From the NCBI GenBank assembly GCA_000955795.1, contig JYOB01000010.1:666590-730589 (forward strand): a DNA stretch of 64,000 bases. Reading direction: 5' to 3'. This DNA is from Burkholderiaceae bacterium 26. Its GTDB lineage: Bacteria; Pseudomonadota; Gammaproteobacteria; Burkholderiales; Burkholderiaceae. Positions 48,044 through 64,000 of the stretch are shown one piece after another (the first letter of the stretch is position 1; the number at the start of each line of letters is the position of its first letter). The position numbers and the translations under genes are program-made. The notes beneath the pieces were generated by a model, which was not told the origin of the DNA, did not search any database, and saw only the letters and a program-made list of their open reading frames with translations.

Positions 48044-48319
48044 CGCGGGCAACCATTCCACCTTGCGCGACTGGCGAATCCTGAAGCTGCTTCAGCAGCT
48101 TCGACATGTGGGCAGCGACCACGAGGAAGCGCAAGGTTTCTGGCGTCATGCACAACGGCGCCTGCCGCTCGCCTGGGCAGCGAATGGGAAGCACAGGGTG
48201 ACTTGGACACCCGCTGCAATCGGCCAACACCGGGCGCAGTTGTTCAAGCCGCGCGCATGTTTCCCCACGCCTCGCCCGATCTCCGCCATTTCCGTTTTGT
48301 TTCAGACCAGACACTCGCC
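48044..48319 (+). other. Long glyA leader with a strong hairpin
   Basis: About 270 bases without a recognised gene. A perfect stem GAAGCTGC-TTCA-GCAGCTTC (48083-48102) is present; an alternative pairing CTGAAG / CTTCAG in the same sequence is mutually exclusive with it. I do not recognise a glycine, folate or SAM riboswitch core here. Confidence 0.4.
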
Positions 48320-50233: not shown

Positions 50234-50869
50234 TTAGGAGGACGCCGGTAGGTCGCTTTCGTTGGATGGTTCAATCTGGAACTCCAGTTCCCTTACCGCA
50301 GCCACATCCGCTCCTAAGCGCTTAGCAGGTACAAAGCGCGTCTCCATGAGAATCAAAGCCAATCTGGCTGCGGCGGCACGATTGTCATCGCTCGCGCGGA
50401 CGATTTCAGCGCGCACAACCGCACCATCAACGGCGATATAAACGCGCAATGTTATCGGCGATGAGTTTGCGACTAACGCCGTCACGTCCAGAAGTTCAAG
50501 TGTGCTAGCTGGCAAGGCCTGGCGATCCACTTCCGTCGACGCATAAAACCGCATCCCGTCGACATTCTCTGAAGGAGAAATCCCAGGTGGGGATCCTTTC
50601 GGCTGGTGACTTGCGCTGTCAGAGAAGCTTGCGTTCAGCGGCGTGACACGTCGCTGGCGTGGGGAGAGTGCAGTTTGCGTACCTACGCCTCTTTGCCCGT
50701 TCGCGCTGGCGCCCTCCCCTACCGGCGCCGCCGGCAGACCGACGAATAGTAGCGGGGGACCGACTTCGCCCTTGTCCCCCGGCGTTTGAGGTTTCCAAAT
50801 GCTGGCAGCATGCAGGAAAGCCAAATGGCCCGTCACTGCAACAGCGCAGGCGATCCAGCTACGCCTCAT
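50234..50869 (-). CDS. TonB-like protein at the end of the pilus operon
   Basis: A 211-residue protein with a single N-terminal hydrophobic segment (WIACAVAVTGHLAFLHAASIW), a Pro/Gly/Ser-rich middle, and a C-terminal domain (residues 135-205; LRVYIAVDGAVVRAEIV, then AARLALILMETRFVPAKRLG) that resembles the TonB C-terminal fold. It lies 68 bases after pilY1 on the same strand, so it is probably the last gene of the full-size minor-pilin operon. No ExbBD genes are near. A role in envelope energy transfer or in secretion of the pilus tip is inference. Confidence 0.65.
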   Translation of the reverse strand: MRRSWIACAVAVTGHLAFLHAASIWKPQTPGDKGEVGPPLLFVGLPAAPVGEGASANGQRGVGTQTALSPRQRRVTPLNASFSDSASHQPKGSPPGISPSENVDGMRFYASTEVDRQALPASTLELLDVTALVANSSPITLRVYIAVDGAVVRAEIVRASDDNRAAAARLALILMETRFVPAKRLGADVAAVRELEFQIEPSNESDLPASS

Positions 50870-50937: not shown

Positions 50938-53900
50938 TTAGTCGGCCGTAGGCACTTCACGCCAGTTGATCTGACGGATAGCCTGCACCACTGTAGGAAC
51001 CAATGGCACAGAATTGATCGCGCTGTTGTCTGTACCGGCCTCCAGCCGGACCGAACCATTGACATTCAGGTAGGACAGATCAACCACCAGTCCGCCCCCG
51101 GCGAAGTAGGGCTGCAGCACGCCCACACTATTGACCACGCGGCTGATACCGGTACCGATATCCATCGAGAACACGCGGTTCGTCCCGGATGGATTGCATG
51201 CATCTCCGTTGGGCAAGTTCGCGGCAAACGACACCGTACCGAAGTTCGAGACAGGCGCCACGTTGACGCGTTCGGCCACGCCGTTGGACGACTGGCCCAG
51301 GTCGATGTAATACCCCATGACCGACGTCGGCGCACCGCCAATCCCCTTCAACAGATTGGTGTCCGCGTTGAGATCCTTGCGCTGAATCGGGAAAGTGACA
51401 CCGGCCGGGAGATCCGTACTGCTGTTGAAGCGTTGCACCACGCCGTCGTAGATGACGTAGAAGCTCTGCGTCTGACTGCTGGCAATATCGGTGCTACCGA
51501 GCAGACGGCCGGTGCCAACCATGACGTAGCGCTTCAGCGAGTTGGGCTGAATCTCGATCAGGGGCGGCGTGGTAACGGGTTGTGCATTGCCGCTTGGATC
51601 GGTCAGCTGCGCAATCTGGGTCGGTGCCGGATAGGCGCCGCTTGCAGCCGTAAGGTCAAAACGCCAGACGTTGCCCAGCAGGTCGCCGGCGTAGATGGAG
51701 TCCGCAGTGTTGTCCGTGTAGTCAGCAACATAGGCAGACGCATAGGCTAGACCTGCGGGTGAGCTTGCGGAACCAACACCCGTGGAGATCGACTCCAGCA
51801 ACGCCCCGGTCGCCGGGTTCAGGATAAAGAGCCGTCCCACGCCATCGGCGTTGTTGTAGCCCGACGGCACCGCCACGATCCAACCGTACTTCTTGGTCTT
51901 CACAACGATCGGGTCTCCATAGGTGAAGCCCAAGGTGCCTTGCTGCGCGTTGGCGGGACCACCGAATTCCCACATCACTTTGCCGGCGAGTGCGGTCTCG
52001 GTGGTGATCGTGGTGGGGTCGGTAATGTCGAGCGCGTAGTAGCCCTTGCCGCCCTTGCCCAGACCGCCGATCAGCATCGTGTGCCAGTCGGAGGTGCTCG
52101 ACGAAGACGGCTTGGCACCACCGGCGCGCGACAGGTCGATATCAAAGGCCTGTGGCGTGGCATCCACCATGGCGTGGTGGACGAAATTCGTGCCAGACAA
52201 GCCCAGCGATGCCAGACCATTGACAGTGGGCGTGCAAGTGCCGGAAGTGCACGGCCCTTGATAGAGGAAGCTCGGCACATAGGCAAACAGTTCGTTGCCA
52301 CTCGTTGTACGGCCGACGGTGCCGTCGAATGCGTGCATCATGCCGTCGTTTGCGCCAACGTAGACCACCGGGTTGCGACTGGCATAGGTGCTCTTGAACA
52401 ATGCGTAACCCGGGTTGGTCGCACTTGACAAGACAGCGACGGGAGGGCCCACCGCGTCGACTTTCGAGCCCACGATATCCCCCAACAAAAAGGCACGCTG
52501 ACGATAGACAGCCTTGCCGTTCGTGCCTTCGTTGGTGCTATCTCCCCGCAGGTAATTCAGGAAGTCCTGGTTGTTCCAATTCTTCACGGCCGAGTTACTA
52601 AGTGCACTCTGGTTGGTCGTCGTGAGCTTTGCGAATTGGAACGGGACACCCTGCGCGGTGCCAACGCTATTGCTGGTGGCAATCAGGCGTGACGAACTCG
52701 ATTGGTTTGCGAGTTGCGTTTGCGCAGACCACGCCTTCGTCTGCGTGGGCAGCCCAGTCTTGGCATCAAAACTAAGCGAACTGCCGACGACGTCCCCGGT
52801 CCAGGTTGAGGAATTGTAGGAAGCTGAATACCCAATGTTGCCGGTCAAGCTTACGTTGGCGGAAGAGACCGCCAGCGCCGTTGTGGCCGCCTGAATATCG
52901 TTGGAGATGTTCTGGAACGCAGAATTCAGACCGTTCACCATCAGGTCTGCCTGACCCGCCAGGTAGTAGTTGTCCGGCATCGGCTTGCCGTTGGGGTCCG
53001 TGTTGCCACTCGCATTCCATAACGACTGAGCCAACGCCGTGGTGTTGCTGACGTTGTAGTTGCTGGGGACACTGAAACCGCCATACTTTGCCGCCAGCCA
53101 GAACTGATTCTGATACTTGTACTGCTGGTACTCCTGCACATCCAGCCAATAGGTCGAGATGGTCTGGATCTTAGACTTGTTACCGAGGCTGTCCTTAAAG
53201 TCGTTCGGGCGGATATCGCGCACGTGCGAATCGTAGGCAAGCCCAGCCATCAGGAAGGTGTTGTTGTCCCCACAGCACCATGACGGCGAAGCCGTGTTGA
53301 GACTACCGATGCCCTCCATCTTGCCTACGAGGCTGGTCGCGGAGTCCACATTGACAGTGGTATCGCTCGTCACCTCCGCAGGCATCGCAGGCTCGTACTT
53401 GGTATTGGCGATCGTGCTGCGCGGCAGATTCGCATCCGCGTGGGTGTTGACGTCGCCAATGCCGAGAATGTAGTTCTTTTGGCAGGAGTATTGGATGGGG
53501 TCATCCCACGTCTGGATAACCGGGAAACCATCCACGAGGGTGGCATTGGTGTTGGAGGAATAGCTGGCAACGTTGCCCAAGTTCTTGTAGTACCGGATAC
53601 CTGCGTAGTACAGCTCGCCAACGGGGTCATACGTCTTGTAGTTCTTGGAGGCGGAACCGAACTTGTTGAGGTAGTTCATGACCCCGCTGTTCGTCACCCC
53701 GGTTGCCGTGGCGTCGGACGTATCTGGGTTGGAAACCATCGTGCCGTCTGTTGCGCTCCATTCGGCCACCGTGTTGGTCGTGGGGCTCTTGCCCGGAACC
53801 GGCTGAGTTGGGCCGATGAACTTCATCCGCGCGCGTAACACCCCGCCATCGCGCATGATGCTCGAGTCGTTGAGGTAACCGAACGCGCCAAACCGGATAC

Positions 53901-54669
53901 GCTGCGAGTACTGCTGCATCAGACCTTCCGGCTTGTAGTTGCTGCCGTACTTTGTGCAGTTCGCCTCCGGCTGCGACGGATCGCACACCTTCACACGCAC
54001 GTAGACCGACCAAACCTTAGACGCATTGGGAGACGCGCCAGAACTGTAGGTATTGACGGGATCCGAGTCCAGATTACCTTTATTGGTGAAATACAGTTTG
54101 TTGCCGGCGCCGTAGATGCGCACGCCGATACTGTTCCAACTGAACGGCGTAATTGCCGCCACTGTCGTGCCGCCGCTGACGGTGCGGTTTGGTGTTTCGC
54201 CAGAGCCGCCCTGGCCAGATGCCCAGGCTTTCTCAAGCACGGTAAGCGATGCTGTATCCGTGACGCGGTAGCCACCTGTCAGCGCCCATCGAAATGGATC
54301 GATGGTCTGCATCGCTGCCCAGTTCAGGAATGCGCCACTCCAGTAGTTATTGCCACTGGCACACTGATAGTTGCTATTTGCAGCCGTTGCCGGAACGAAA
54401 TAGTTGTTGGCGTCGACGTTGGCGTCGTATTGATACGTATAGCACTTGAGCGGATCGAAGTAACCGAGGTACTTGACCCCCGCCGAATAGCCGCTGACGT
54501 ACGCAATACTGTTGGCTGTCGGATACTCCACCGACAGCGAGAGCAGCAGATTGCCCGGCACCGACACGGAGCTGAAGAGCGGCTGGTCGGCCAGGTCGGT
54601 CTGTGCAGCCGACACCAGTAGTGCAGGTAACAACAAGGCGCTTGCAAGCAAGCCGCGCAGGAAAGTCAT
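50938..54669 (-). CDS. pilY1: Type IV pilus tip adhesin/assembly protein PilY1 (full length)
   Basis: A 1243-residue exported protein with a signal peptide (TFLRGLLASALLLPALLVSA, residues 2-21). The N-terminal half (to about residue 700) is the variable part that includes the putative tip adhesin region. The C-terminal half is the PilC/PilY1 beta-propeller: VGANDGMMHAFDG near residue 770, LIGGLGKGGKGYYALDITDP, and a calcium-loop-like element VADYTDNTADSIYAGD followed by LGNVWRFDL near residues 980-1008. PilY1 sits at the pilus tip with minor pilins and controls extension, retraction and adhesion. A GGAGCCC ribosome site precedes the ATG. Follows pilX by 71 bases. Confidence 0.93.
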   Translation of the reverse strand: MTFLRGLLASALLLPALLVSAAQTDLADQPLFSSVSVPGNLLLSLSVEYPTANSIAYVSGYSAGVKYLGYFDPLKCYTYQYDANVDANNYFVPATAANSNYQCASGNNYWSGAFLNWAAMQTIDPFRWALTGGYRVTDTASLTVLEKAWASGQGGSGETPNRTVSGGTTVAAITPFSWNSIGVRIYGAGNKLYFTNKGNLDSDPVNTYSSGASPNASKVWSVYVRVKVCDPSQPEANCTKYGSNYKPEGLMQQYSQRIRFGAFGYLNDSSIMRDGGVLRARMKFIGPTQPVPGKSPTTNTVAEWSATDGTMVSNPDTSDATATGVTNSGVMNYLNKFGSASKNYKTYDPVGELYYAGIRYYKNLGNVASYSSNTNATLVDGFPVIQTWDDPIQYSCQKNYILGIGDVNTHADANLPRSTIANTKYEPAMPAEVTSDTTVNVDSATSLVGKMEGIGSLNTASPSWCCGDNNTFLMAGLAYDSHVRDIRPNDFKDSLGNKSKIQTISTYWLDVQEYQQYKYQNQFWLAAKYGGFSVPSNYNVSNTTALAQSLWNASGNTDPNGKPMPDNYYLAGQADLMVNGLNSAFQNISNDIQAATTALAVSSANVSLTGNIGYSASYNSSTWTGDVVGSSLSFDAKTGLPTQTKAWSAQTQLANQSSSSRLIATSNSVGTAQGVPFQFAKLTTTNQSALSNSAVKNWNNQDFLNYLRGDSTNEGTNGKAVYRQRAFLLGDIVGSKVDAVGPPVAVLSSATNPGYALFKSTYASRNPVVYVGANDGMMHAFDGTVGRTTSGNELFAYVPSFLYQGPCTSGTCTPTVNGLASLGLSGTNFVHHAMVDATPQAFDIDLSRAGGAKPSSSSTSDWHTMLIGGLGKGGKGYYALDITDPTTITTETALAGKVMWEFGGPANAQQGTLGFTYGDPIVVKTKKYGWIVAVPSGYNNADGVGRLFILNPATGALLESISTGVGSASSPAGLAYASAYVADYTDNTADSIYAGDLLGNVWRFDLTAASGAYPAPTQIAQLTDPSGNAQPVTTPPLIEIQPNSLKRYVMVGTGRLLGSTDIASSQTQSFYVIYDGVVQRFNSSTDLPAGVTFPIQRKDLNADTNLLKGIGGAPTSVMGYYIDLGQSSNGVAERVNVAPVSNFGTVSFAANLPNGDACNPSGTNRVFSMDIGTGISRVVNSVGVLQPYFAGGGLVVDLSYLNVNGSVRLEAGTDNSAINSVPLVPTVVQAIRQINWREVPTAD

Positions 54670-54740
54670 AACAGAAGGGCTCCGCGAAGCGCTGGCCTTC
54701 CAACCTCGGTCACGAGTGGGGTGCATGGCAGTTCAGCAAC

Positions 54741-55343
54741 TCAGAGAGAAACAGTGGTCTGGAGGAACGTCTGGCTATTGCGCGGCCCATCGACCCGCAC
54801 GCTGATACGGTAGACAGGCACCGAAGGCGGCTGGGCCTGACCACGATACGGCAGAACAGTCCCCCCCTTGGCGGAACCGATCGAACTGACAACGCAAGCA
54901 TTGGAGGGATCAGTCGAGCCTGTCGCGTTACAGAGGCGATCGATCATGTAGTAAATAGTGATGCCGTCGCCGCCGTTGATCTTGGTGTTGGCGACCGGGG
55001 TATCCAAGGCGACCAGGCTGTTTGGCAGGCCATGCTTGTCCGTGGGCTGCATCGTGGCGTAATAGCCGCTTGCAGCCTGGTTGCTCTGGCGCACCGCTTC
55101 CTGGTTAAGCGCACCGCTGGTCAGGGCAGCCTTGGCGGCCACAATGCCCAACTCACCGCGGTTGGTCATATCCCGCTTGAATGCGAGGTTGCCCGCGTTG
55201 AACAGCGCGGCATCGGACGAGCGAAACAGCGCAACGGTGCCGATGGCCAGGATGACCACGGCAATCAGCGCAATCAGCAGAACAATGCCGGACTGACGCC
55301 GACGCAAGGCGCGATTCGACCGAAACTTGAGCGTGGTTGGCAT
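54741..55343 (-). CDS. pilX: Minor pilin PilX
   Basis: A 200-residue type IV minor pilin. A basic leader (residues 1-19) ends at glycine before IVLLIALIAVVILAIG; like other PilX proteins it lacks glutamate at mature position 5, so it belongs at the filament tip. The globular part contains paired cysteines (LCNATG and NACVVSS). It starts two bases after pilW and precedes pilY1, the usual order. Confidence 0.88.
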   Translation of the reverse strand: MPTTLKFRSNRALRRRQSGIVLLIALIAVVILAIGTVALFRSSDAALFNAGNLAFKRDMTNRGELGIVAAKAALTSGALNQEAVRQSNQAASGYYATMQPTDKHGLPNSLVALDTPVANTKINGGDGITIYYMIDRLCNATGSTDPSNACVVSSIGSAKGGTVLPYRGQAQPPSVPVYRISVRVDGPRNSQTFLQTTVSL

Positions 55344-55345
55344 CG

Positions 55346-56593
55346 TCAGCGCTGCAACAACGTGTTGCGCAAAGGAATCGTGGCTTCCAACACGCGGTAA
55401 CGATAGTTCTGCTCCGCGCCTGCGAGCTTCCGTGTGTAGGCCAGCCCAGGTACATCGGCAAACAAGACCAGCGGCCCCGAACTGACGACGCCCGTTGCGG
55501 TGGTTGCGCTGGCACTCGTCACGTATTGCTGCGCGCGTTCGAGCAACGACGTCCGCAGGATCAAACCAATACGTATCGCCTTGATCGCATAGAGATTGGC
55601 CGCGGCAGTCTGCGTGCCGTTGGACAGCGTAGCCGCATCGAATGCGCCCGTCGGCGCTTGCCAGCTGACGTTACCGGTGTTGTTCGGATCGATGCCGTAC
55701 AGAGCATGCATTTCCACCACGCCATCGGTAAGTGGGATTGCGGTATAACCGTTGCCCCCCGATTGCAGCAAGTCGTAAAACATCAACGTGTTATTGGCGC
55801 CTACGCCATACACCCCAAAGGCCGGCAAGTTGCCGCCGCCGACATTGCCGAGGTTCATGGCAACGCCCGTTGCCGAGACGCTGGCCGCATTGCCATCCTT
55901 GCCGACCGACGCGTCATAGGCACCGGCCAGCGGCAGTTGCACGGCGACGCTGCCGGTAAAGCCGGTCTGCACTTGTCCGACATAGCAAGGCTGTACGTTG
56001 CCCTGGGCATTGTTGCGGTCTGCCATGAGCACAAGGTTGCCAGCATTGAAGGTCATGGTGTTGATCAGACTAAGGCTCACCACGCTTCCGGAAATCGTCG
56101 GTGCGGTATTGGAAAACTCGGTCGGAATCTCTCCATAGCCAGCATTGCCCGCCATGGTGATGATCGCGTCAGAACTTCCGGTGGTCAGGGGCGTGCCGTT
56201 TTGCACGATCAGTAGCGGAGCCAATCGGAACCCGCCCAACTGCGTCGACAGTTTGTCGAACGGCGGCGGAACCTTGGTCGGTGACGGGAGAATCTGATCA
56301 CCGTTCAAATTGACATTCAGGTGGCAGCCATAGGTCAGCGGCCAGTTCTGGGAATAACCCGACCCTGCACTGCGGATCGCCTTATCCAACTGGTACAAAG
56401 CGAACACACCGCTTTGGTTGATGTCGCTGACTGACATCGTGGTGCGCTTGCGCCCTTCCGACACGCTCATCAGGCCAAACACTGCACCCACAATGACCAT
56501 GCTGACGACCAACGCCACCATCAGCTCAATTAGGCTGAGGCCGGTCTGGCGGGCGGCACGCAATGGCCGCTTGGCTGGAGTTCCGGCGTTCAC
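55346..56593 (-). CDS. pilW: Minor pilin PilW
   Basis: A 415-residue minor pilin. The leader ends RAARQTG, followed by the mature helix LSLIELMVALVVSMVIVGAV with E5 in place. The large C-terminal domain is typical of PilW, with MHALYGIDPNNTGNVSW near residue 310 and VEATIPLRN-like ending. The start is a GTG at 56593 that overlaps the pilV stop (GTGA), which indicates coupled translation; a longer frame would run deep into pilV. Confidence 0.88.
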   Translation of the reverse strand: MNAGTPAKRPLRAARQTGLSLIELMVALVVSMVIVGAVFGLMSVSEGRKRTTMSVSDINQSGVFALYQLDKAIRSAGSGYSQNWPLTYGCHLNVNLNGDQILPSPTKVPPPFDKLSTQLGGFRLAPLLIVQNGTPLTTGSSDAIITMAGNAGYGEIPTEFSNTAPTISGSVVSLSLINTMTFNAGNLVLMADRNNAQGNVQPCYVGQVQTGFTGSVAVQLPLAGAYDASVGKDGNAASVSATGVAMNLGNVGGGNLPAFGVYGVGANNTLMFYDLLQSGGNGYTAIPLTDGVVEMHALYGIDPNNTGNVSWQAPTGAFDAATLSNGTQTAAANLYAIKAIRIGLILRTSLLERAQQYVTSASATTATGVVSSGPLVLFADVPGLAYTRKLAGAEQNYRYRVLEATIPLRNTLLQR

Positions 56594-57075
56594 GGCAGCA
56601 CCACCTGCGTCACATACCGGCTCGTGCTGCTCATACCCGCGGTCGCGTTCACACCGTGAGACGGCGCTTGCCAAGTGATGGTGATCGTCGCGATATTGGT
56701 CGTGCTATCGACGGAGACCGAACCCGTACCGTTAGGCAGGCCACCGAGTCCGCTACCGACGGGGCTTGATGCGCTGGCCGTCCTGTAGCTCACGTTGGTA
56801 CCAACCATCGTTTGCCACGCAGCGACCGACGACGCCGGCAGATTGACCGTGTGGTTCTGCCACATCGTGCTGGCCAGTTCATTGGCCAACAAAGCGGCCC
56901 GGTTGCGGTCTTCGGCGTCAACCGACACCTGCGAGGCACGAATTTGCGCCATCACCATGGCCGTCAACGCCACGGTCAGCAGCAACATCGCAATCAGCAC
57001 CTCAATAAGCGTCATCCCGCTCTGCGAGCGTGAGCTGCATTCGACGAGGTTTGGGGCGGGGTTAGCTGCACGCAT
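56590..57075 (-). CDS. pilV: Minor pilin PilV
   Basis: A 161-residue minor pilin. The leader ends SRSQSG, followed by MTLIEVLIAMLLLTVALTAM with E5. A globular domain of about 110 residues follows, ending SSTSRYVTQVVLP. The ATG at 57075 overlaps fimT by 14 bases. It belongs to the priming complex with PilW, PilX, PilE and FimU-type pilins. Confidence 0.87.
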   Translation of the reverse strand: MRAANPAPNLVECSSRSQSGMTLIEVLIAMLLLTVALTAMVMAQIRASQVSVDAEDRNRAALLANELASTMWQNHTVNLPASSVAAWQTMVGTNVSYRTASASSPVGSGLGGLPNGTGSVSVDSTTNIATITITWQAPSHGVNATAGMSSTSRYVTQVVLP

Positions 57076-57667
57076 CTGGACTACCCTGCGACAAAGACTT
57101 GCTCGGATCGCACACACGGATCGAACCGCCCAGGCTCACGGTCACGTTCAGTGCGCGCGCAGTAGAAGACCGGCTGTTCGTCACGTTGTAAGTCACAGTG
57201 CCCGAGGTCGGAACGGTGCAGTTGTACGTGCCATCGTTGAGCGTGGTCAGCCGGCCCAACGAGTTGAAGCAGATCGAAGCTGGCCCCGCGAGTTGCGCGT
57301 TGGGCGAAGCGGCGCCAATTGCACCGCTTTGCACCATCAACGGGAACGCGGATTTGGTGTACGACTCGCCTGCTGTCGTGTTCGGGATCACGGTAGCGAA
57401 CCAGTTCTTGCCATTCGCTTGGGCTGCCACACCGTCCCCCGGCGCGCTATTTGTCAGCACCAGAGCCACTTGGCGATGGCGGCGCGCCGCCTCGGCTTGG
57501 GCAACGCGCAGACCGTTCTGCAGTGATTCGGCCGCGGTACGCACCTGCGCATCCTGAATCCAGCCCGTAAAACTCGGTGCCGCCAGGAGCATCAAAAAGG
57601 CAAACACCGAAATCGTGACGAGCAGTTCGATCAGCGTGAAGCCGCGGCGCCGGGCGCCTGCGACCAT
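57062..57667 (-). CDS. fimT: FimT/GspH-type minor pilin
   Basis: A 201-residue pseudopilin of the FimT/GspH family. The prepilin site is RRRG before FTLIELLVTISVFAFLMLLA. The body has GspH-type features, including AESLQNGLRVAQAEAARRHR and SICFNSLGRL, and a C-terminal pair of cysteines (RVCDPSKSL and DACS). FimT in other species binds DNA during uptake; FimU primes assembly. The ATG at 57667 overlaps the pilE stop by one base. Confidence 0.87.
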   Translation of the reverse strand: MVAGARRRGFTLIELLVTISVFAFLMLLAAPSFTGWIQDAQVRTAAESLQNGLRVAQAEAARRHRQVALVLTNSAPGDGVAAQANGKNWFATVIPNTTAGESYTKSAFPLMVQSGAIGAASPNAQLAGPASICFNSLGRLTTLNDGTYNCTVPTSGTVTYNVTNSRSSTARALNVTVSLGGSIRVCDPSKSLSQGSPDACS

Positions 57668-58188
57668 CAGCACGACTGCCCTCGCTTAGTCACCCAGCAC
57701 GTCGTGGACGTGTTCCAGCCCGCAGGTGCTGCCGTCGTCTGCTGAACGTTTGCTTCATTCACCGTGTAGGTGAAGCCCGCTGTGGTTCCGGAGCCCGTGG
57801 CGGTCATCGTGTAGGTATTACCGGTGCCCCCAATCGAGCAAACCAACGAAAACTCGGCCACAGCCGAAATCGCCTGACAGGGCGGGGTGAATGTCCCGAC
57901 CGCTGCGTAGGTGCGGTTGTCCTGGTAATACTGTTCCATCTGCGCGCGAATACCCGCGAGCATGTTGGTCACGTTGGCCAGCTTGCCACGCGTGATGTAG
58001 TCGGTATAGCTGGGATAGGCGATCGTCGCCAAGATGGCCACGATGGCCACCGTAATCATGAGTTCGACAAGCGTGAACCCAGATGCACGCGCAATTGCCG
58101 GACGCAACCGTGCTCTTCGAACGGAAGAGTGAACGGCCAAATCGGAATCACGCGACACGCTTGCGTTAACGCAGAGCGGCGCAGACAT
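57667..58188 (-). CDS. pilE: PilE-like type IV pilin
   Basis: A 173-residue pilin, first gene of the left cassette. The prepilin site RASG precedes FTLVELMITVAIVAILATIA with E5. The body shows GKLANVTNMLAGIRAQMEQY and a C-terminal cysteine pair. The 36-residue leader is longer than usual; an in-frame GTG at 58134 would give an 18-residue leader. It is a minor pilin of the PilE type rather than the major pilin PilA by context. Confidence 0.83.
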   Translation of the reverse strand: MSAPLCVNASVSRDSDLAVHSSVRRARLRPAIARASGFTLVELMITVAIVAILATIAYPSYTDYITRGKLANVTNMLAGIRAQMEQYYQDNRTYAAVGTFTPPCQAISAVAEFSLVCSIGGTGNTYTMTATGSGTTAGFTYTVNEANVQQTTAAPAGWNTSTTCWVTKRGQSC

Positions 58189-58784
58189 GTCAATGCCGCC
58201 GCAGAACGTTCGACCGCGAAAGAGTTATCTTGACCCAATACATGTAGCCCCCCGGCTGCTTGAAATAACAAATGCATCTACGTAAAGACGCATCATTCCC
58301 GATTACCCGACTACTTTCTTTTGATTCTGCTGCCTGTGATATCTGGCAGATACGACGTCAAGGCGAATGGTCGCAATCATGGAGGATGCTGCGGACCAGT
58401 GTCAATAGACGGTCCCCGACGAGCGGGCATCGTTTGTTGGGACAATGCAACCGCTGGATTGCCCGGATTTGAGCACGGGGACCAGCGTTGCTTTGCCTGA
58501 AGCAGGGGTGTCCACAGCCAGAAGAGCCGCCGGGTGGTCAAAACCAATTGCGATGGGTGAACCACCACGGCAGCTCCAACTCCGCCCGGGCAACCGATAT
58601 ACGGCCCTTGATGGTTCGCCCCAAACAAACCAGCGCAGTGTTGAGAGGCGCGGCGATAAAACAGCATCACGAACGGTGAAGACCGTCGCCAGGCTGCCAG
58701 CGCAGCATATTGACCAGATGTGACAGTTATACGGCCAAATTGGCACTAACTTAAGCGGCTCTTTCAAAACGCGTTAGCCGAGTC
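58189..58784. other. 596-base spacer between two divergent pilus cassettes
   Basis: This gap holds the promoters of both cassettes. It is slightly less GC-rich next to pilE. No gene, transposon end or repeat is convincing; frames of about 90-120 codons on both strands in 58377-58767 look like chance. A TGGCAC element at 58738 is a partial sigma-54 match, but its spacing is wrong by one base. Confidence 0.5.
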
Positions 58785-58976
58785 ATGCCTGCCCACCCCC
58801 ACAACCGATTCCAGCGCGGTGCAATCCTGCTCGAAGGTCTCATTGCCTTGGCGATTCTGTCGCTCGGTGCGGCAGCCATGTTCCGCACGTTCGATTACCT
58901 GGAAGCTACCAGCCACGCTGCCCGCCAACTCAGCGACGAAGGCCGCCGCCTACTCGACTTCGCCCAGACCCGCTGA
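58785..58976 (+). CDS. Helix-only PilV-like prepilin, first gene of the second cassette
   Basis: A 63-residue peptide. The leader ends FQRG and is followed by AILLEGLIALAILSLGAAAM with E5, a complete class III prepilin signal and N-terminal helix. The helix continues amphipathically to the stop at residue 63, with no globular domain. pilW-like starts one base later, so there is no room for a missing domain and no frameshifted remnant. It could be a mini-pilin or the result of an internal deletion in a pilV ancestor. Confidence 0.72.
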   Translation: MPAHPHNRFQRGAILLEGLIALAILSLGAAAMFRTFDYLEATSHAARQLSDEGRRLLDFAQTR

Positions 58977-58977
58977 G

Positions 58978-59901
58978 ATGCCGCGCCTGCTCCCCAAGCC
59001 CGTACGCGGTGTATCGCTAGTCGAAATGCTGATCGGCATGACCATCGCTCTGATGGTGTTGGCCATCGCATTGCAGTTGATGCTGCTTGCCCGGGCTCGC
59101 TACCAGCGGTTGGCCGATGAGGCACTCATCGAGGAACGCGGCAACCAAGCGTTGGAACTGCTAGGACGAGCCGTGCGGCAGGCGGGGTGGATCACCGACA
59201 CCCCAGCCTCAACATCGATACGCAGTTGGCCCCATACGGAAGCGCCATCGCTGATGGGCGCCGAGAATTGCCGCGACCCGAAGAGCACGCCAGCGTTCGG
59301 GTGCAATCGCAACGACGGCAAAACCGGCGATGCGCTGCTCGTTCGCTTCGCCGGTCGCAGCGCGAAGCCGGACGGGGTGGACGCCGACGGGGCCACGCGC
59401 GACTGTGGCGGCTACGGCGTGCCAGAGCGCGTCGCAAGCGAGAGCGATCCGCATCCTGGCCGCATGCTTTTGTTCGTCGGACCTAACTCTACAGATAAAG
59501 AACTTGAACTCAGATGCAAATCCCTCGACCGCAAAGACCCGTCCAAGGACGGCGATGCCCAGGGCATGGTGCGAGGTGTCGAAACATTGCAGCTCCTCTA
59601 CACGCTTGGACCCTTCGCATCCGCGCCTCGCATAACAAAATCGGCACGTGCCATGACGAATGAAGACTGGGGCCGCGTCCGGGAGGTTCACGTTTCGATT
59701 ATCGTGCGCGGCGAGAGATCTTCGGCCAGGAAGCCCGTCGCGAGCACGATTGCGCTCTTCCCACATCTACCAAGGAATCACGTCGAAGCGCTTCGCGAAG
59801 ACTTGAGCTTCACCCCCGCTGATCCTGGTCGCAACCGTGCGCACTTCGTCGCCACGTTCGCCGTACGCAATCCGCTCGTTTGCGAGGTCAACGCGTGTTG
59901 A
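58978..59901 (+). CDS. PilW-like minor pilin, second cassette
   Basis: A 307-residue minor pilin, about 100 residues shorter than the left PilW. The prepilin site PVRG precedes VSLVEMLIGMTIALMVLAIA with E5. The head domain has four cysteines (ENCRDPK, FGCNRN, RDCGGY and LRCKSL). Start ATG at 58978, one base after the mini-PilV stop. Its frame overlaps the next gene by a few bases. Confidence 0.82.
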   Translation: MPRLLPKPVRGVSLVEMLIGMTIALMVLAIALQLMLLARARYQRLADEALIEERGNQALELLGRAVRQAGWITDTPASTSIRSWPHTEAPSLMGAENCRDPKSTPAFGCNRNDGKTGDALLVRFAGRSAKPDGVDADGATRDCGGYGVPERVASESDPHPGRMLLFVGPNSTDKELELRCKSLDRKDPSKDGDAQGMVRGVETLQLLYTLGPFASAPRITKSARAMTNEDWGRVREVHVSIIVRGERSSARKPVASTIALFPHLPRNHVEALREDLSFTPADPGRNRAHFVATFAVRNPLVCEVNAC

Positions 59902-60518
59902 CTTCGCAGACGCACGATCGCGGCTTCTCGATCATTCTTGTCATCGGTGCGTTGAGCACCATCAGCCTCTTGATGGTCGCTGCACTTCATTTAGTACAGG
60001 ATCACCGTCGTCGGTCCTCGCTCTTCGCCGACCACGCACTTGCGCTGCAGGAGGCTGAAGCCGCTCTAGCAGTCGCCGAATGTGAGCTGGCGCTCGCAAC
60101 GGACACCCCCTCGTTAGGCGACTGCACTCCCGCGCCAAGTGCCGCGCGTATCACTGCACTCAACCCCATCAACTTGGCAGGCTTTGTACGGGGGCACTGT
60201 GGGCAGGACACGCCACGGCGTGGGCTCTGCTGGCCGGCCGAAGGCCTGTCTGCTCAGGCGCTGGCGGGGTTAGCCGGCACAACGAGCAGCAACGCCGTGC
60301 CCCTGCCCAGGACGACCACGGTCAGCCCCCGGCAACCAATGCGCAATGCCCGCTACATCATTGAACCGATCCCGGATACGCAAGTCGGTCAATGGGTCGA
60401 CGCCGGCACCCCACCTTCGCCCTGGCTCTTTCGAATTACGGCCGTGGGCTTTAGCGCGGACGAGCACGTCAATGTGCTGCTGCAGACTGTCTACCGGCCC
60501 AGGGCGATTCAACCATGA
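59895..60518 (+). CDS. PilX-like minor pilin, second cassette
   Basis: A 207-residue protein. The prepilin site is HDRG before FSIILVIGALSTISLLMVAA, lacking E5 as expected for PilX. The body has a cysteine-containing segment (ECELALATD, GDCTP, GHCGQD, GLCWPAEG). No ATG is available; a GTG at 59895 or a TTG at 59898 that overlaps the pilW-like stop are the likely starts. The PilY1-like gene overlaps its stop (ATGA). Confidence 0.78.
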   Translation: MLTSQTHDRGFSIILVIGALSTISLLMVAALHLVQDHRRRSSLFADHALALQEAEAALAVAECELALATDTPSLGDCTPAPSAARITALNPINLAGFVRGHCGQDTPRRGLCWPAEGLSAQALAGLAGTTSSNAVPLPRTTTVSPRQPMRNARYIIEPIPDTQVGQWVDAGTPPSPWLFRITAVGFSADEHVNVLLQTVYRPRAIQP

Positions 60519-62332
60519 ACGCGCGACGGCTCAGCGCGTGGCTGGTAGCCGCGCTTGCCTGCTCGGCTCCCGCAGCGACCGGCAACCACCCGACAGGCCA
60601 ACTACCCACGCACATCCTCGCCGCACGCGGTAACGATGCCTGGAGCGGTCGGCTGCGGGCGCTGCAGTTTTTGCCGACGCTCGGCACGGTTGATGCGCCG
60701 TTGCCGCCCGATCTTTGGGAGGCGGCGTGGATACTCGATGAGGCGTCTCACGACGAACGCCAACTCTGGACATTCCGTCACGGCGACGGGGCGGAACGCA
60801 GGCCGGCACGGCTGCGTTGGGAAGCACTCTCTTCAGCGCAGCAAACGGCCGTTGACTCAGCCAGCGATCTTGGCATCAAGCGTATCCATTATCTGCACGG
60901 CGCGCGCTACGCCGAGTTCGACGGAACCGGCCTACGACGGCGTACGTCGATCTTGGGTGCCATGCATGGCGCACGTGTGCAGTTGCTTGGGCCACCCGGT
61001 TTCGTACTCGACCCTCGTCATGCGAGTTTCCGCGAGGCGCACGCACAGCGGCCGTGGATGGTCTATGTGGGTGCAAACGATGGTCTATTGCATGGCTTCG
61101 ATGCACGCACCGGCGTGGAACGCTTTGCCGTCATTTCCGACGCCACTCTGCCGACCGCTGCGCGCAACACATCACCCGGCCAGCCTGTGCCGGGCCCTGT
61201 GTGCAGCCGGCCGTTTGTCGCCGACGCATGGACGGGTTCGCGATGGCAGTCGCTACTCGTGTGCGGAAATGGCCCAATGGGCACTGGCCTTTTCGTTGTC
61301 GACGTCACGGATCCAACCTCCCCCTCCCCTCCACCCGTGCTGGCCTATGACGCCAGCGACGACGCCACGGTCGGGCACATCAACGGCCCTATTCCCATTG
61401 TTCCGCTCGCCAGCGCCGGTACCGGTGAGTCGCACTGGTTCATCGTCGCAGGCAACGGCCGCGGAAACCCGAGCAAGGTCAGCCGCCTGCTGTTGCTGGC
61501 GCTCGACCGATCGAAACATCCTGCCTATACGATCGACGTGCCAGCCAAAACCGGCGAACTGGGCTCGCTTGGCGGCCTAGGCTCACCCGCGGTGGCGCTA
61601 GCGCCGCAAGGGCATGCCACCCTCGCCTATGCCGCAGACAAGCAAGGCCAAATCTGGCGCTTTAATCTCAGCGGCGTGGCGCCATGGACAAACGCGCTCG
61701 GGCGTAATGAAACGGAGCGAAGCACTCCATTTTTCAGCGCTGTTTCGCGCAGCAAACTCACGCAACGTATTGGACCGATTTTGATAGCCGCCACTACCGG
61801 GGGGCCGTTGCTTGTGTTCACTGCAGTCGACACTACTGGGGGCGCCACGCTGTACGGCGTGATCGACACCGGCGACCGCAACCTATCGCGCGAAAGCCTG
61901 GCTGGCCTGCGTGTTACCGAAGCAGCAGGCAGCGTAACGATCCAGCCGGGCAACGAGAGGGCCACAAGCGGCTGGCGCATTGACTTACCCAGCGGGCAAG
62001 TGCCGGACGACCTCGCCCGCGCAGGTTCACACGACTTTCTGCTCACCACACGCGACACGGCTGGCCGTAAACACGCCTATCTCCTCGATTCGCGCACCGG
62101 CTTGCCTGCCGATAGCGAGGGCCACACCGGACAGATACTCGTTGGCACACCGCTCATCACCACGATCGACGCGCCGCCAACTCAGACGCCGAGCGGCACA
62201 ACCATACAAACCACCCGCACCACCCTGTGGCAAGCCGATGAAAGCCACATCCACCAAATGGATACCCGGATCTACTCACGCCAACTGGGCCGGCTAAGCT
62301 GGCGCGAGATGACGGAAATGGGGGCGCGCTGA
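60515..62332 (+). CDS. Half-length PilY1-like protein, second cassette
   Basis: A 605-residue exported protein with a short signal peptide (residues 1-22, ending APAAT). It consists mainly of the PilY1 C-terminal beta-propeller: WMVYVGANDGLLHGFDARTG near residues 180-200, the block LVCGNGPMGTGLFVVDVTDP, and AYAADKQGQIWRFNLSG near residue 380. The N-terminal adhesin half of the long PilY1 is absent. At the place of the calcium loop, the two conserved acidic residues are replaced by Q and T, so calcium control is probably lost. It overlaps pilX-like and its last base is shared with the PilE-like start. Confidence 0.82.
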   Translation: MNARRLSAWLVAALACSAPAATGNHPTGQLPTHILAARGNDAWSGRLRALQFLPTLGTVDAPLPPDLWEAAWILDEASHDERQLWTFRHGDGAERRPARLRWEALSSAQQTAVDSASDLGIKRIHYLHGARYAEFDGTGLRRRTSILGAMHGARVQLLGPPGFVLDPRHASFREAHAQRPWMVYVGANDGLLHGFDARTGVERFAVISDATLPTAARNTSPGQPVPGPVCSRPFVADAWTGSRWQSLLVCGNGPMGTGLFVVDVTDPTSPSPPPVLAYDASDDATVGHINGPIPIVPLASAGTGESHWFIVAGNGRGNPSKVSRLLLLALDRSKHPAYTIDVPAKTGELGSLGGLGSPAVALAPQGHATLAYAADKQGQIWRFNLSGVAPWTNALGRNETERSTPFFSAVSRSKLTQRIGPILIAATTGGPLLVFTAVDTTGGATLYGVIDTGDRNLSRESLAGLRVTEAAGSVTIQPGNERATSGWRIDLPSGQVPDDLARAGSHDFLLTTRDTAGRKHAYLLDSRTGLPADSEGHTGQILVGTPLITTIDAPPTQTPSGTTIQTTRTTLWQADESHIHQMDTRIYSRQLGRLSWREMTEMGAR

Positions 62333-62727
62333 TGCGCCGGATGCGGGCGTTCACTCTGCTGGAGATCATGGTGGTGCTTGTCATAACGGGCACCCTGGCA
62401 TTTGTCGCCCTGTCAGCATGGCCCTCGTACGTGCAGCGCTCGCGGCGTGCGGCAGCCGGCGCCGCCTTGATTGCAACCCTGGCGCAACTGGAAATGCAGC
62501 ATATGCGCACGGGCAAGTACGATCCGGAGGATTCCGGCCCGCCACTAGAGGTCGATGGCTATTCCCTGCAGCCCCAGAACTGCACGCGTCTTGATCTTGT
62601 GAAATTTCCCGACGACTGCGTGCAAGTAGTTGCAATGTCGACCGCCCCCAGTGACCGCGCATGCCCCGTGCTAATCCTGCGCAGCACCGGCGAGCGCGAA
62701 CCGGACGACCCGGCATGCTGGCCATAA
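62332..62727 (+). CDS. PilE-like minor pilin with Ala at the cleavage site
   Basis: A 131-residue minor pilin. It begins MRRMRA, then FTLLEIMVVLVITGTLAFVA with E5. The residue before the cleavage point is alanine instead of the near-universal glycine. The short head has three cysteines (QNCTRL, DDCVQV, RACPVL) plus DDPACWP at the end. Its first base is the last of the PilY1-like stop. The fimT-like gene overlaps its 3' end by 13 bases. Confidence 0.8.
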   Translation: MRRMRAFTLLEIMVVLVITGTLAFVALSAWPSYVQRSRRAAAGAALIATLAQLEMQHMRTGKYDPEDSGPPLEVDGYSLQPQNCTRLDLVKFPDDCVQVVAMSTAPSDRACPVLILRSTGEREPDDPACWP

Positions 62728-63296
62728 CACAACGCTTACTGCGGCTTCGCCAGGCGGGTGTCACGCTCGTCGAGCTGGTGATCGTATTGGCCATCCTTGG
62801 CGTGTTGGCCGTGGCGGCGGCGCCATCGGTGGTCGATCGCTGGCAACGCGACACCGTGATCCTGCTTGCTGAGCAATTCGCCAGCGCCGCTTCCCTGGCA
62901 CAGACAATGGCCCAGTATCAGCATCTTCAGACCAATCTTGTTCCGCTTGATACCCAAAAAGGCTGGGCTGGTGGTTGGAAGTTAACCACGTCGCCTGCCG
63001 CAAGCGATCCTGATAGGACAATCTCAAATCCCCAGGAAGAGACCACGTTTTCCATATCGCCGCCGATCACGCAGGCCGTGCGTATCAACTGGAGCGCTGG
63101 CGCCGGGCTTTCCTACGCACCTGTGGGATACTCACGGCGTAGCAATGGGGGGCAACTGTACGGCACGCTGGAAATATCCTGGGGCCGGCATGTGCGCCAA
63201 GTGCGGATCAACAGCGTTGGCCGCGCCCGCATCTGCAACCCGACCACGGACGGCAACAGCTGCAAACCGATGGGTGTCGACGCCCCCGATCCCTAA
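62715..63296 (+). CDS. FimT/GspH-like minor pilin, second cassette
   Basis: A 193-residue pseudopilin. The prepilin site is RLRQAG before VTLVELVIVLAILGVLAVAA with E5. The head resembles the FimT/GspH fold, with WGRHVRQVRINSVGRARIC near the C-terminus, a segment also seen as SICFNSLGRL in the left cassette. It overlaps the PilE-like gene by 13 bases and ends 21 bases before ribD, so read-through into riboflavin genes is possible. Confidence 0.8.
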   Translation: MLAITQRLLRLRQAGVTLVELVIVLAILGVLAVAAAPSVVDRWQRDTVILLAEQFASAASLAQTMAQYQHLQTNLVPLDTQKGWAGGWKLTTSPAASDPDRTISNPQEETTFSISPPITQAVRINWSAGAGLSYAPVGYSRRSNGGQLYGTLEISWGRHVRQVRINSVGRARICNPTTDGNSCKPMGVDAPDP

Positions 63297-63317: not shown

Positions 63318-64000
63318 ATGTTCTCCGACTTCGACCACGCCATGATGCAGCGCGCCCTGGCGCTGGCCGAGAAGGGCTTGTTCACCACGACGCCCAACCC
63401 GCGCGTCGGATGCGTGATCGTGCGTGACGACACCGTCATCGGCGAAGGCCATACGCAACCCGCCGGCCAGGACCACGCTGAAATCCAGGCGATCAAGGAT
63501 GCCCAGTCGCGCGGCCAGGACGTGCGCGGGGCCACCGCATATGTGACGCTGGAGCCCTGCAGCCACTTTGGCCGCACCCCACCCTGCGCAGATCGACTGG
63601 TCGAAGCCGGCATCGCGCGCGTGGTCGCAGCCATGGAAGACCCCAACCCCGCCGTCTCCGGACGCGGCTTGCAGAAGCTGCGCGATGCCGGAGTGGACGT
63701 GCGTTGCGGACTGCTGGAGCGGGAGGCGCGTGAGCTGAACATCGGTTTCGTTTCACGCATGACGCGCGGCACGCCGTGGGTACGCGTGAAGGTCGGCGCG
63801 TCGTTGGACGGCCGCACCGCGCTGGACAATGGCATCAGCCAGTGGATTACCGAAACCGAAGCGCGCAACGACGGCCACCGCTGGCGCGCACGCGCCTGTG
63901 CCATCCTCACCGGCATCGGCACGGTGCGCGAAGACAATCCCCGGCTGACCGTGCGCGCTGTCAATACGCCACGCCAGCCACGCCGCGTGCTGATCGACTC
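63318..64000 (+). CDS. ribD: Riboflavin biosynthesis protein RibD (partial at window end)
   Basis: The first 227 residues of the bifunctional deaminase/reductase that makes 5-amino-6-ribitylamino-uracil precursors in riboflavin synthesis. The N-terminal deaminase domain has the zinc site HAEIQAI and LEPCSHFGRTPPCADRL near residues 53-95. The reductase domain begins around residue 150 (VRVKVGASLDGRTAL, WITETEARNDGHRWRA). The frame is still open at the window edge. In relatives it follows nrdR directly. Confidence 0.97.
   Translation, partial: MFSDFDHAMMQRALALAEKGLFTTTPNPRVGCVIVRDDTVIGEGHTQPAGQDHAEIQAIKDAQSRGQDVRGATAYVTLEPCSHFGRTPPCADRLVEAGIARVVAAMEDPNPAVSGRGLQKLRDAGVDVRCGLLEREARELNIGFVSRMTRGTPWVRVKVGASLDGRTALDNGISQWITETEARNDGHRWRARACAILTGIGTVREDNPRLTVRAVNTPRQPRRVLID

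What the first reader, a model, noticed from the sequence alone, without database searches (positions are those of the whole stretch)
57062..63296. Two divergent, non-identical minor-pilin/PilY1 cassettes back to back
On the minus strand the order is pilE-fimT-pilV-pilW-pilX-pilY1; on the plus strand it is pilV-pilW-pilX-pilY1-pilE-fimT. Both sets contain all six types, but the right set is shorter throughout and shares only motifs with the left. This suggests two alternative pilus-tip or priming modules for one filament, or a degraded but still coherent copy. Every gene in the right set has an intact frame, with tight overlaps, which argues against decay.
Basis: partly seen in the sequence, partly recalled or inferred. 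Interest (0 to 1): 0.75.

Follow-up and report, generated by a model that had tools for sequence, protein, structure and literature searches.

The report
Two swappable pilus-tip gene cassettes
Between two housekeeping genes, Ralstonia bacteria keep two independently exchanged gene sets for the tip of their grappling-hook pili, and in some species one set has lost its tip adhesin PilY1 except for a short tail that is now fused to the neighbouring pilin PilX.

Summary
In detail: two six-gene minor-pilin/PilY1 cassettes lie back to back between nrdR and ribD (left 50938-58188, minus; right 58785-63296, plus), sharing 20-28% identity. "Shorter throughout" fails for pilX and fimT. The right set is neither a recent copy nor decaying: it sits beside ribD in 16 of 16 Ralstonia genomes held, with dN/dS 0.12-0.50. 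The locus behaves as two exchange slots. The left slot holds four PilY1 classes, the right slot two lineages; flanking proteins stay 94-100% identical while cassettes swap independently between species (AU p < 1e-29 for four species groupings; two pairs have cassette dS 0.08-0.09 against 0.29-0.55 for housekeeping genes). New: in 7 of 16 genomes right pilY1 is missing and PilX runs in frame into PilY1's last ~60 residues (LGRLSWREL or close). Each of 16 right cassettes carries exactly one such tail, on PilY1 or on PilX. A second genus (probably Pandoraea; unverified) with no PilY1 detected in 32 genomes has a similar tail on 15 of 15 PilX found. This fits the published, prediction-only proposal that PilY1's C-terminus docks on PilX by beta-strand addition; my own structure models did not settle it. 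New variant of a known kind.

The parts
50234..50869 (-). 211-aa protein, weakly TonB-like, that accompanies left class A
   Evidence: Found next to left class A in 4 of 5 class A genomes (the fifth, G014, ends inside pilY1) and in no other Ralstonia genome; no Pfam match, weak NCBIfam match E 0.00028
50938..54726 (-). left pilY1, 1262 aa, class A
   Evidence: PF05567 124.2 bits
54741..55343 (-). left pilX
   Evidence: by place; no Pfam match
55346..56593 (-). left pilW (GTG start assumed)
   Evidence: PF16074 and N_methyl over cut-off
56590..57117 (-). left pilV
   Evidence: N_methyl; TIGR02523 50.4 of 52.2 bits
57062..57673 (-). left fimT
   Evidence: GspH and N_methyl over cut-off
57667..58188 (-). 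left pilE
   Evidence: ComP_DUS and N_methyl over cut-off
58189..58784 (.). central intergenic region, boundary between the two slots
   Evidence: sequence similarity between genomes starts or stops here in pairwise alignments
58708..58725 (+). start of a conserved block upstream of mini-pilV
   Evidence: alignment of 16 upstream regions; one exact and one 2-mismatch match in the genome
58785..58976 (+). right mini-pilV, 63 aa
   Evidence: homologues of 63-75 aa in 16 of 16 genomes
58978..59901 (+). right pilW
   Evidence: PF16074 39.3 bits
59880..60518 (+). right pilX
   Evidence: PF13681 38.3 bits
60515..62332 (+). right pilY1, 605 aa, propeller only
   Evidence: PF05567 45.5 bits; model matches 3hx6 at E 2.5e-21
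62150..62329 (+). codons of the PilY1 end that are found fused to PilX in 7 relatives (about residues 546-605)
   Evidence: alignment; match 544-603
62285..62308 (+). terminal motif LGRLSWRE (residues 591-598), the proposed docking peptide
   Evidence: G592, R593, W596, R597, E598 invariant in 15 of 15 aligned short PilY1
62332..62727 (+). right pilE
   Evidence: N_methyl over cut-off
62661..63296 (+). right fimT
   Evidence: GspH and N_methyl over cut-off
63318..63998 (+). start of ribD, right flank of the locus
   Evidence: 94-100% identical protein in 16 genomes

Best explanation
The nrdR-ribD interval of Ralstonia is a two-slot exchange locus for type IVa pilus tip (priming and adhesion) cassettes. 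Each slot encodes minor pilins and normally a PilY1, and the two slots are replaced independently between species, probably by homologous recombination through the conserved flanks and the central intergenic region. In the right cassette a propeller-only PilY1 is proposed to dock on PilX through its last residues (LGRLSWRE), adding a beta-strand to PilX. Where pilY1 was lost from this cassette, an in-frame event left that tail attached to PilX, so PilX would keep the strand in cis and the minor-pilin cap could form without its own adhesin. Shown: the slots, the exchanges, the fusion, selection on the tail, and a similar tailed PilX in a second genus. Inferred: that the tail docks on PilX, that it does so in cis after fusion, how exchange happens, and the effect on the pilus.
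For: Right cassette in 16 of 16 Ralstonia genomes. Seven changes of the right state on the 4-gene tree against one on the right-cassette tree; AU test rejects four species groupings, p 7e-80 to 9e-30. Sharp breakpoints at nrdR, centre and ribD. Recent sharing in two pairs: dS 0.08 and 0.09 against 0.29-0.55. Fusion in 7 of 16, aligned over about 60 residues, one clade. Exactly one tail motif per right cassette, 16 of 16 (a loose pattern). Pooled pN/pS 0.27 in the motif, 0.72 in the linker, 0.36 in the PilX body, with pS in the motif not reduced. Motif invariant in 15 of 15 short PilY1. Tail on 15 of 15 PilX found in genus g27, no PF05567 match in 32 genomes. Published models of PilX-PilY1 strand addition (passages).
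Against: AlphaFold2 of the fused PilX left the tail at pLDDT under 50 and put a weak strand before the motif (226-234), not on it (only 2 of 17 rows carried the tail). No significant fold match for that model. The fusion in G014 reads WLEL, not WREL, and in G009 LGPLNWREL. The motif statistic rests on about 17 codons. In one search only 2 of 15 pairs chosen show cassette dS clearly below housekeeping dS; in other same-class pairs it is equal or higher (for example left G000/G010 0.48 against 0.13-0.26), so exchange there rests on topology. The g27 tail is linked to PilY1 by motif and position only; 17 of 32 g27 genomes gave no PilX match, and the tool warns that its PF05567 null is not proof of absence. 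No expression or pilus data.
Confidence: 0.65

Rival explanations
1. The tail on PilX is a passive remnant of a deletion, or is kept because the end of pilY1 carries translation signals coupled to pilE.
For: pilY1 and pilE overlap in the window (62332), and fused pilX overlaps pilE likewise; the linker evolves fast (pN/pS 0.72).
Against: The motif is held at the protein level (pN/pS 0.27) while its synonymous sites are free (pS 0.48); genus g27 has a similar tail on PilX.
Confidence: 0.2
2. The mixed distribution comes from old paralogues or alleles sorted by differential loss, not from transfer between species.
For: Both right lineages are deep; most cassette comparisons have dS over 1.3.
Against: Left PilY1 of G006/G009 and right pilW of G008/G009 have dS 0.08 and 0.09, below housekeeping dS of the same pairs; each genome examined holds one allele per slot.
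Confidence: 0.08
3. The right set serves another filament, such as a type II secretion pseudopilus.
For: Two more ATPases match the PilB model below its cut-off (543 and 483 bits); right PilE and FimT match GspG/GspH models weakly.
Against: Right PilW, PilX and PilY1 match type IV pilus families over the cut-off.
Confidence: 0.06
4. The right set is a decaying duplicate of the left.
For: Short PilV and short PilY1; pilY1 missing in 7 of 16 relatives.
Against: Open frames in 16 of 16 genomes, dN/dS 0.12-0.50, 20-28% identity to the left set, and its own relatives beside ribD in Cupriavidus.
Confidence: 0.03

Closest known systems
fimU-pilVWXY1E minor-pilin/PilY1 operon of type IVa pili (Pseudomonas aeruginosa; recalled, and as described in PMC13190605 passages)
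   Same: Gene content and neighbourhood: FimT/FimU, PilV, PilW, PilX, PilY1, PilE.
   Different: Two such sets back to back; the right one with a helix-only PilV and a propeller-only PilY1.
Myxococcus xanthus minor-pilin/PilY1 clusters 1-3 (PMC11046646, PMC13190605, passages)
   Same: Several clusters in one genome; PilY1 C-terminus modelled as a strand added to PilX.
   Different: No natural PilX-tail fusion in the passages seen ('fusion' occurs 0 times in PMC13190605); not described there as exchange slots.
Xanthomonas translucens pilus gene variation (PMC5217246, passages)
   Same: Minor pilins and PilY1 28-52% identical between pathovars while 15 of 22 pilus genes are over 94%.
   Different: One cassette; no fusion reported in the passages seen.
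Ralstonia solanacearum pilX and pilY1 under balancing selection (PMC6580516, passages)
   Same: Same genus, same gene families, alleles kept in populations.
   Different: Single genes in a genome scan; whether its pilX lies at this locus was not checked.
Streptococcus sanguinis PilA/PilC minor pilins (PMC9934059, one passage)
   Same: One minor pilin stabilises another, by modelled strand complementation.
   Different: No PilY1 and no fusion in the passage seen.

Membership tests
T4aP minor-pilin/PilY1 cassette (right set) | PilW, PilX and PilY1 families present in one gene cluster | tested here: met
   PF16074, PF13681, PF05567 over cut-off
T4aP minor-pilin/PilY1 cassette (right set) | Class III prepilin signal on each pilin | tested here: inconclusive
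   N_methyl over cut-off for pilW, pilE, fimT; pilV 20.7 of 21.2 bits; pilX none
T4aP minor-pilin/PilY1 cassette (right set) | PilY1 propeller fold | tested here: met
   Model pTM 0.80, 3hx6 at E 2.5e-21
T4aP minor-pilin/PilY1 cassette (right set) | PilY1 N-terminal adhesin domain (vWA, lectin or other) | tested here: not met
   605 aa with propeller match only; some PilY1 relatives are known to vary here, so it limits the claim 'complete PilY1', not 'PilY1 family'
T4aP minor-pilin/PilY1 cassette (right set) | Calcium-binding loop of PilY1 | tested here: not met
   Pattern (recalled) found in 0 of 9 right PilY1; among left ones in the 4 class B1 proteins only
T4aP minor-pilin/PilY1 cassette (right set) | Type IVa pilus machine in the same genome | tested here: met
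   One PilB over the cut-off, 767.3 of 675.65 bits; other machine parts not searched
T4aP minor-pilin/PilY1 cassette (right set) | Products located at the pilus tip | not testable with these tools
   Needs microscopy or pilus proteomics
PilX-PilY1 beta-strand addition | PilY1 C-terminus forms a strand on the PilX sheet | tested here: inconclusive
   Single-chain model of a natural fusion left the tail at low confidence; the tail of PilY1 alone is unstructured (593-605 under pLDDT 50); complexes cannot be predicted here

The most novel reading that the evidence does not exclude
PilY1's part in building the pilus tip can be reduced to a short C-terminal donor strand: in at least two lineages a cassette has dispensed with the adhesin while keeping this strand covalently on PilX, giving self-primed, adhesin-free pilus caps that are swapped in and out of species.
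Probability: 0.4. Interest if true: 0.8.

Novelty: new variant of a known kind. Interest (0 to 1): 0.6.

Why it matters
In the papers I read, how PilY1 is anchored to the minor pilins is known from structure prediction. Natural PilX-tail fusions are independent evolutionary evidence for that contact and offer single-chain proteins in which to test it. The two slots also show that tip modules of pili move between species independently of each other, which bears on how bacteria vary adhesion and (inference) phage reception.

Tried and rejected
Rejected: decaying duplicate; a genome-wide regulon for the upstream element (two matches in the genome, one exact). A first species tree was wrong because the loci were not oriented; one search replaced it. 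AlphaFold2 of fused PilX did not settle the docking, and Foldseek found nothing significant for it (best E 1.8). A profile search of solved structures with the PilX alignment found nothing credible. One search was translated in the wrong frame; one search corrected it. The genus behind code g27 was not verified: 31 genomes of 3.6-6.5 Mb and one of 1.2 Mb fit Pandoraea as I recall it (species list). The window's own species was not identified; seven Ralstonia contigs were named. Ten paper searches gave listings in which I saw no natural PilX-PilY1 fusion and no such two-slot locus; subscription papers and preprints are not held, and most listed papers were not opened, so this does not show that it is unpublished. 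The allele groups of P. aeruginosa minor pilins are recalled only; the listing was not followed up.

Full report
What is there. The window holds two complete minor-pilin/PilY1 cassettes back to back between nrdR and ribD. The left one runs on the minus strand from 58188 to 50938, the right one on the plus strand from 58785 to 63296. Partner proteins share 20-28% global identity and pilX shows no significant match. The right set has two odd members: a 63-residue PilV that is little more than a prepilin signal and helix, and a 605-residue PilY1 that is the propeller alone. A model of the latter (pTM 0.80, 15 rows) matches the solved P. aeruginosa PilY1 domain 3hx6 at E 2.5e-21.

Whose genome. 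Seven matching contigs name the genus as Ralstonia; the window's species was not identified. Sixteen genomes of the genus are held. One PilB passes the curated cut-off in the window's genome and two other ATPases fall below it. A third cassette with its own PilY1 lies on contig C22 beside a T2SSE-type ATPase; its PilY1 is found in 10 of 16 genomes, in G012 split over two frames.

The right cassette is old and selected. It occurs beside ribD in 16 of 16 Ralstonia genomes (the mini-PilV of G014 was seen and placed). dN/dS is 0.12-0.50 in the six closest pairs of each of six genes, 36 pairs. Among 80 named ribD loci, short PilY1 relatives sit beside ribD in 9 of 11 Cupriavidus loci; of the other two, one is a 4.3-kb contig and one (C. 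pauculus UM1, L116) keeps a broken remnant; the 62 loci that are neither Ralstonia nor Cupriavidus gave no hit. In 249 family genomes the right PilY1 finds a match at E 1e-30 in 33.

The locus is a pair of exchange slots. ribD and nrdR proteins are 94-100% and 95-100% identical across the genus (16 and 15 genomes), while right-set proteins have median identities of 46-63%. Left PilY1 proteins fall into four classes by identity: A (G000, G010, G011, G012, G014), B1 (G001, G006, G009, G013), B2 (G002, G004, G005, G007, G008, G015) and C (G003, in tandem orientation as in outgroup genera). Identity is 70-99% within classes and 28-42% between them, the highest between-class values coming from partial sequences. 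A four-gene tree of the genus needs 7 changes for the fused or unfused right state and 6 for left types A, B (B1 and B2 together) and C; the right-cassette tree needs one for the fused state. The AU test rejects four species groupings on right-cassette data, p 7e-80 to 9e-30. Pairs of close genomes align well up to the ends of ribD and nrdR and lose similarity between them, with a further boundary in the central intergenic region. Of 15 pairs compared, two show clear recent sharing: G006/G009 on the left (dS 0.08 against 0.37-0.55) and G008/G009 on the right (0.09 against 0.29-0.41); in other pairs with the same allele class cassette dS is equal to or above housekeeping dS. Left types A and B each occur with both fused and unfused right cassettes, so the slots move independently.

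The fusion. In G004, G005, G008, G009, G010, G012 and G014 (7 of 16) there is no right pilY1. PilX runs on in frame into about 60 residues that align with the end of PilY1. The seven form one clade in the right-cassette tree (100/100), with G007, which keeps pilY1, as sister; single-gene trees agree for pilW, pilX, pilE and fimT, and mini-pilV needs two changes. Two of the genomes have 2 and 3 contigs, so an assembly fault is unlikely. In each of 16 right cassettes exactly one protein carries the terminal motif under a loose pattern; G014 reads WLEL instead of WREL and G009 LGPLNWREL. Among the seven fused genes (21 pairs) pooled pN/pS is 0.36 in the PilX body, 0.72 in the linker and 0.27 in the motif, while pS in the motif is not reduced; the motif is only about 17 codons. 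In 15 aligned short PilY1 (6 Ralstonia, 9 Cupriavidus) G592, R593, W596, R597 and E598 are invariant although mean column identity is 48%. Left PilY1 ends carry a looser form in 15 of 16 Ralstonia genomes; the sixteenth (G014) is cut by a contig end. The 9 Cupriavidus right PilX shown have no tail.

A second case. Over 249 family genomes, 23 matched the fused protein at E 1e-8; it matched full length or nearly so (1-261 in G004) without a stop only in the 7 Ralstonia, and reached into the tail in G248 and G077 of another genus, g27. There the cassette has no pilY1 within the 12 kb fetched and PilX ends in a similar tail. Searching 32 genomes of that genus gave 15 with a PilX match at E 1e-5; the tail is present in all 15, one of them (L206) in a frame interrupted upstream. 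The other 17 gave no match and say nothing. PF05567 matched 0 of 32 genomes; the tool warns that a null alone is no proof, and the same model does find three PilY1 in G000. On a quick tree of 44 PilX bodies the two tailed groups lie apart, needing at least two changes; it has some long branches. That the g27 tail comes from a PilY1 is inferred from motif and position only.

How it probably works. Papers of which I read passages report AlphaFold-Multimer models in which the PilY1 C-terminus adds a beta-strand to PilX in Myxococcus and Neisseria (PMC11046646; PMC13190605). In S. sanguinis one minor pilin stabilises another, by modelled strand complementation (PMC9934059). In Kingella, loss of the minor pilins resembles loss of the PilC adhesins (PMC12607826). 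The simplest reading is that the conserved tail is this donor strand, that PilX needs it, and that a cassette can lose the adhesin only if the strand stays on PilX. My single-chain models neither confirm nor exclude it: the tail is unstructured in PilY1 (residues 593-605) and low-confidence in fused PilX, where a weak strand is placed before the motif, not on it. Exchange by natural transformation and selection by phages or surfaces are guesses.

Standing. Divergent tip genes beside conserved pilus genes are known in Xanthomonas (PMC5217246, passages), and pilX and pilY1 show balancing selection in R. solanacearum (PMC6580516, passages). Several PilY1 clusters per genome are known in Myxococcus. 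What I did not meet in ten searches of one open library is the two-slot exchange and the natural PilX-tail fusion. I therefore rate it a new variant of a known kind.

Noticed in passing
window 58708-58762: A block upstream of the right mini-pilV is conserved across most of the 16 genomes (most divergent in G003 and G013) far better than the genes it precedes; its core has one exact and one 2-mismatch match in the genome.
   Followed up: partly
window 58785-58976: A helix-only PilV of 63-75 residues is kept in 16 of 16 Ralstonia genomes; a longer candidate was seen in Cupriavidus L074.
   Followed up: partly
L183 (G000 contig C22, 59000-75000): A third minor-pilin/PilY1 cassette beside a T2SSE-type ATPase; its PilY1 is in 10 of 16 genomes.
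   Followed up: partly
window 50234-50869: A 211-aa weakly TonB-like protein travels with left class A (4 of 5 class A genomes, the fifth cut by a contig end).
   Followed up: no
L116 7846-8905: In Cupriavidus pauculus UM1 the right cassette is a broken remnant: pieces of PilV and of the PilY1 end remain in separate frames.
   Followed up: partly
L078, L132, L133, L134, L139: Five Cupriavidus loci also show a left set in the opposite orientation to the ribD-side set, so the back-to-back layout is not limited to Ralstonia.
   Followed up: no
window 48057-48185: ZMP/ZTP riboswitch (53.7 bits, cut-off 39) upstream of glyA.
   Followed up: no
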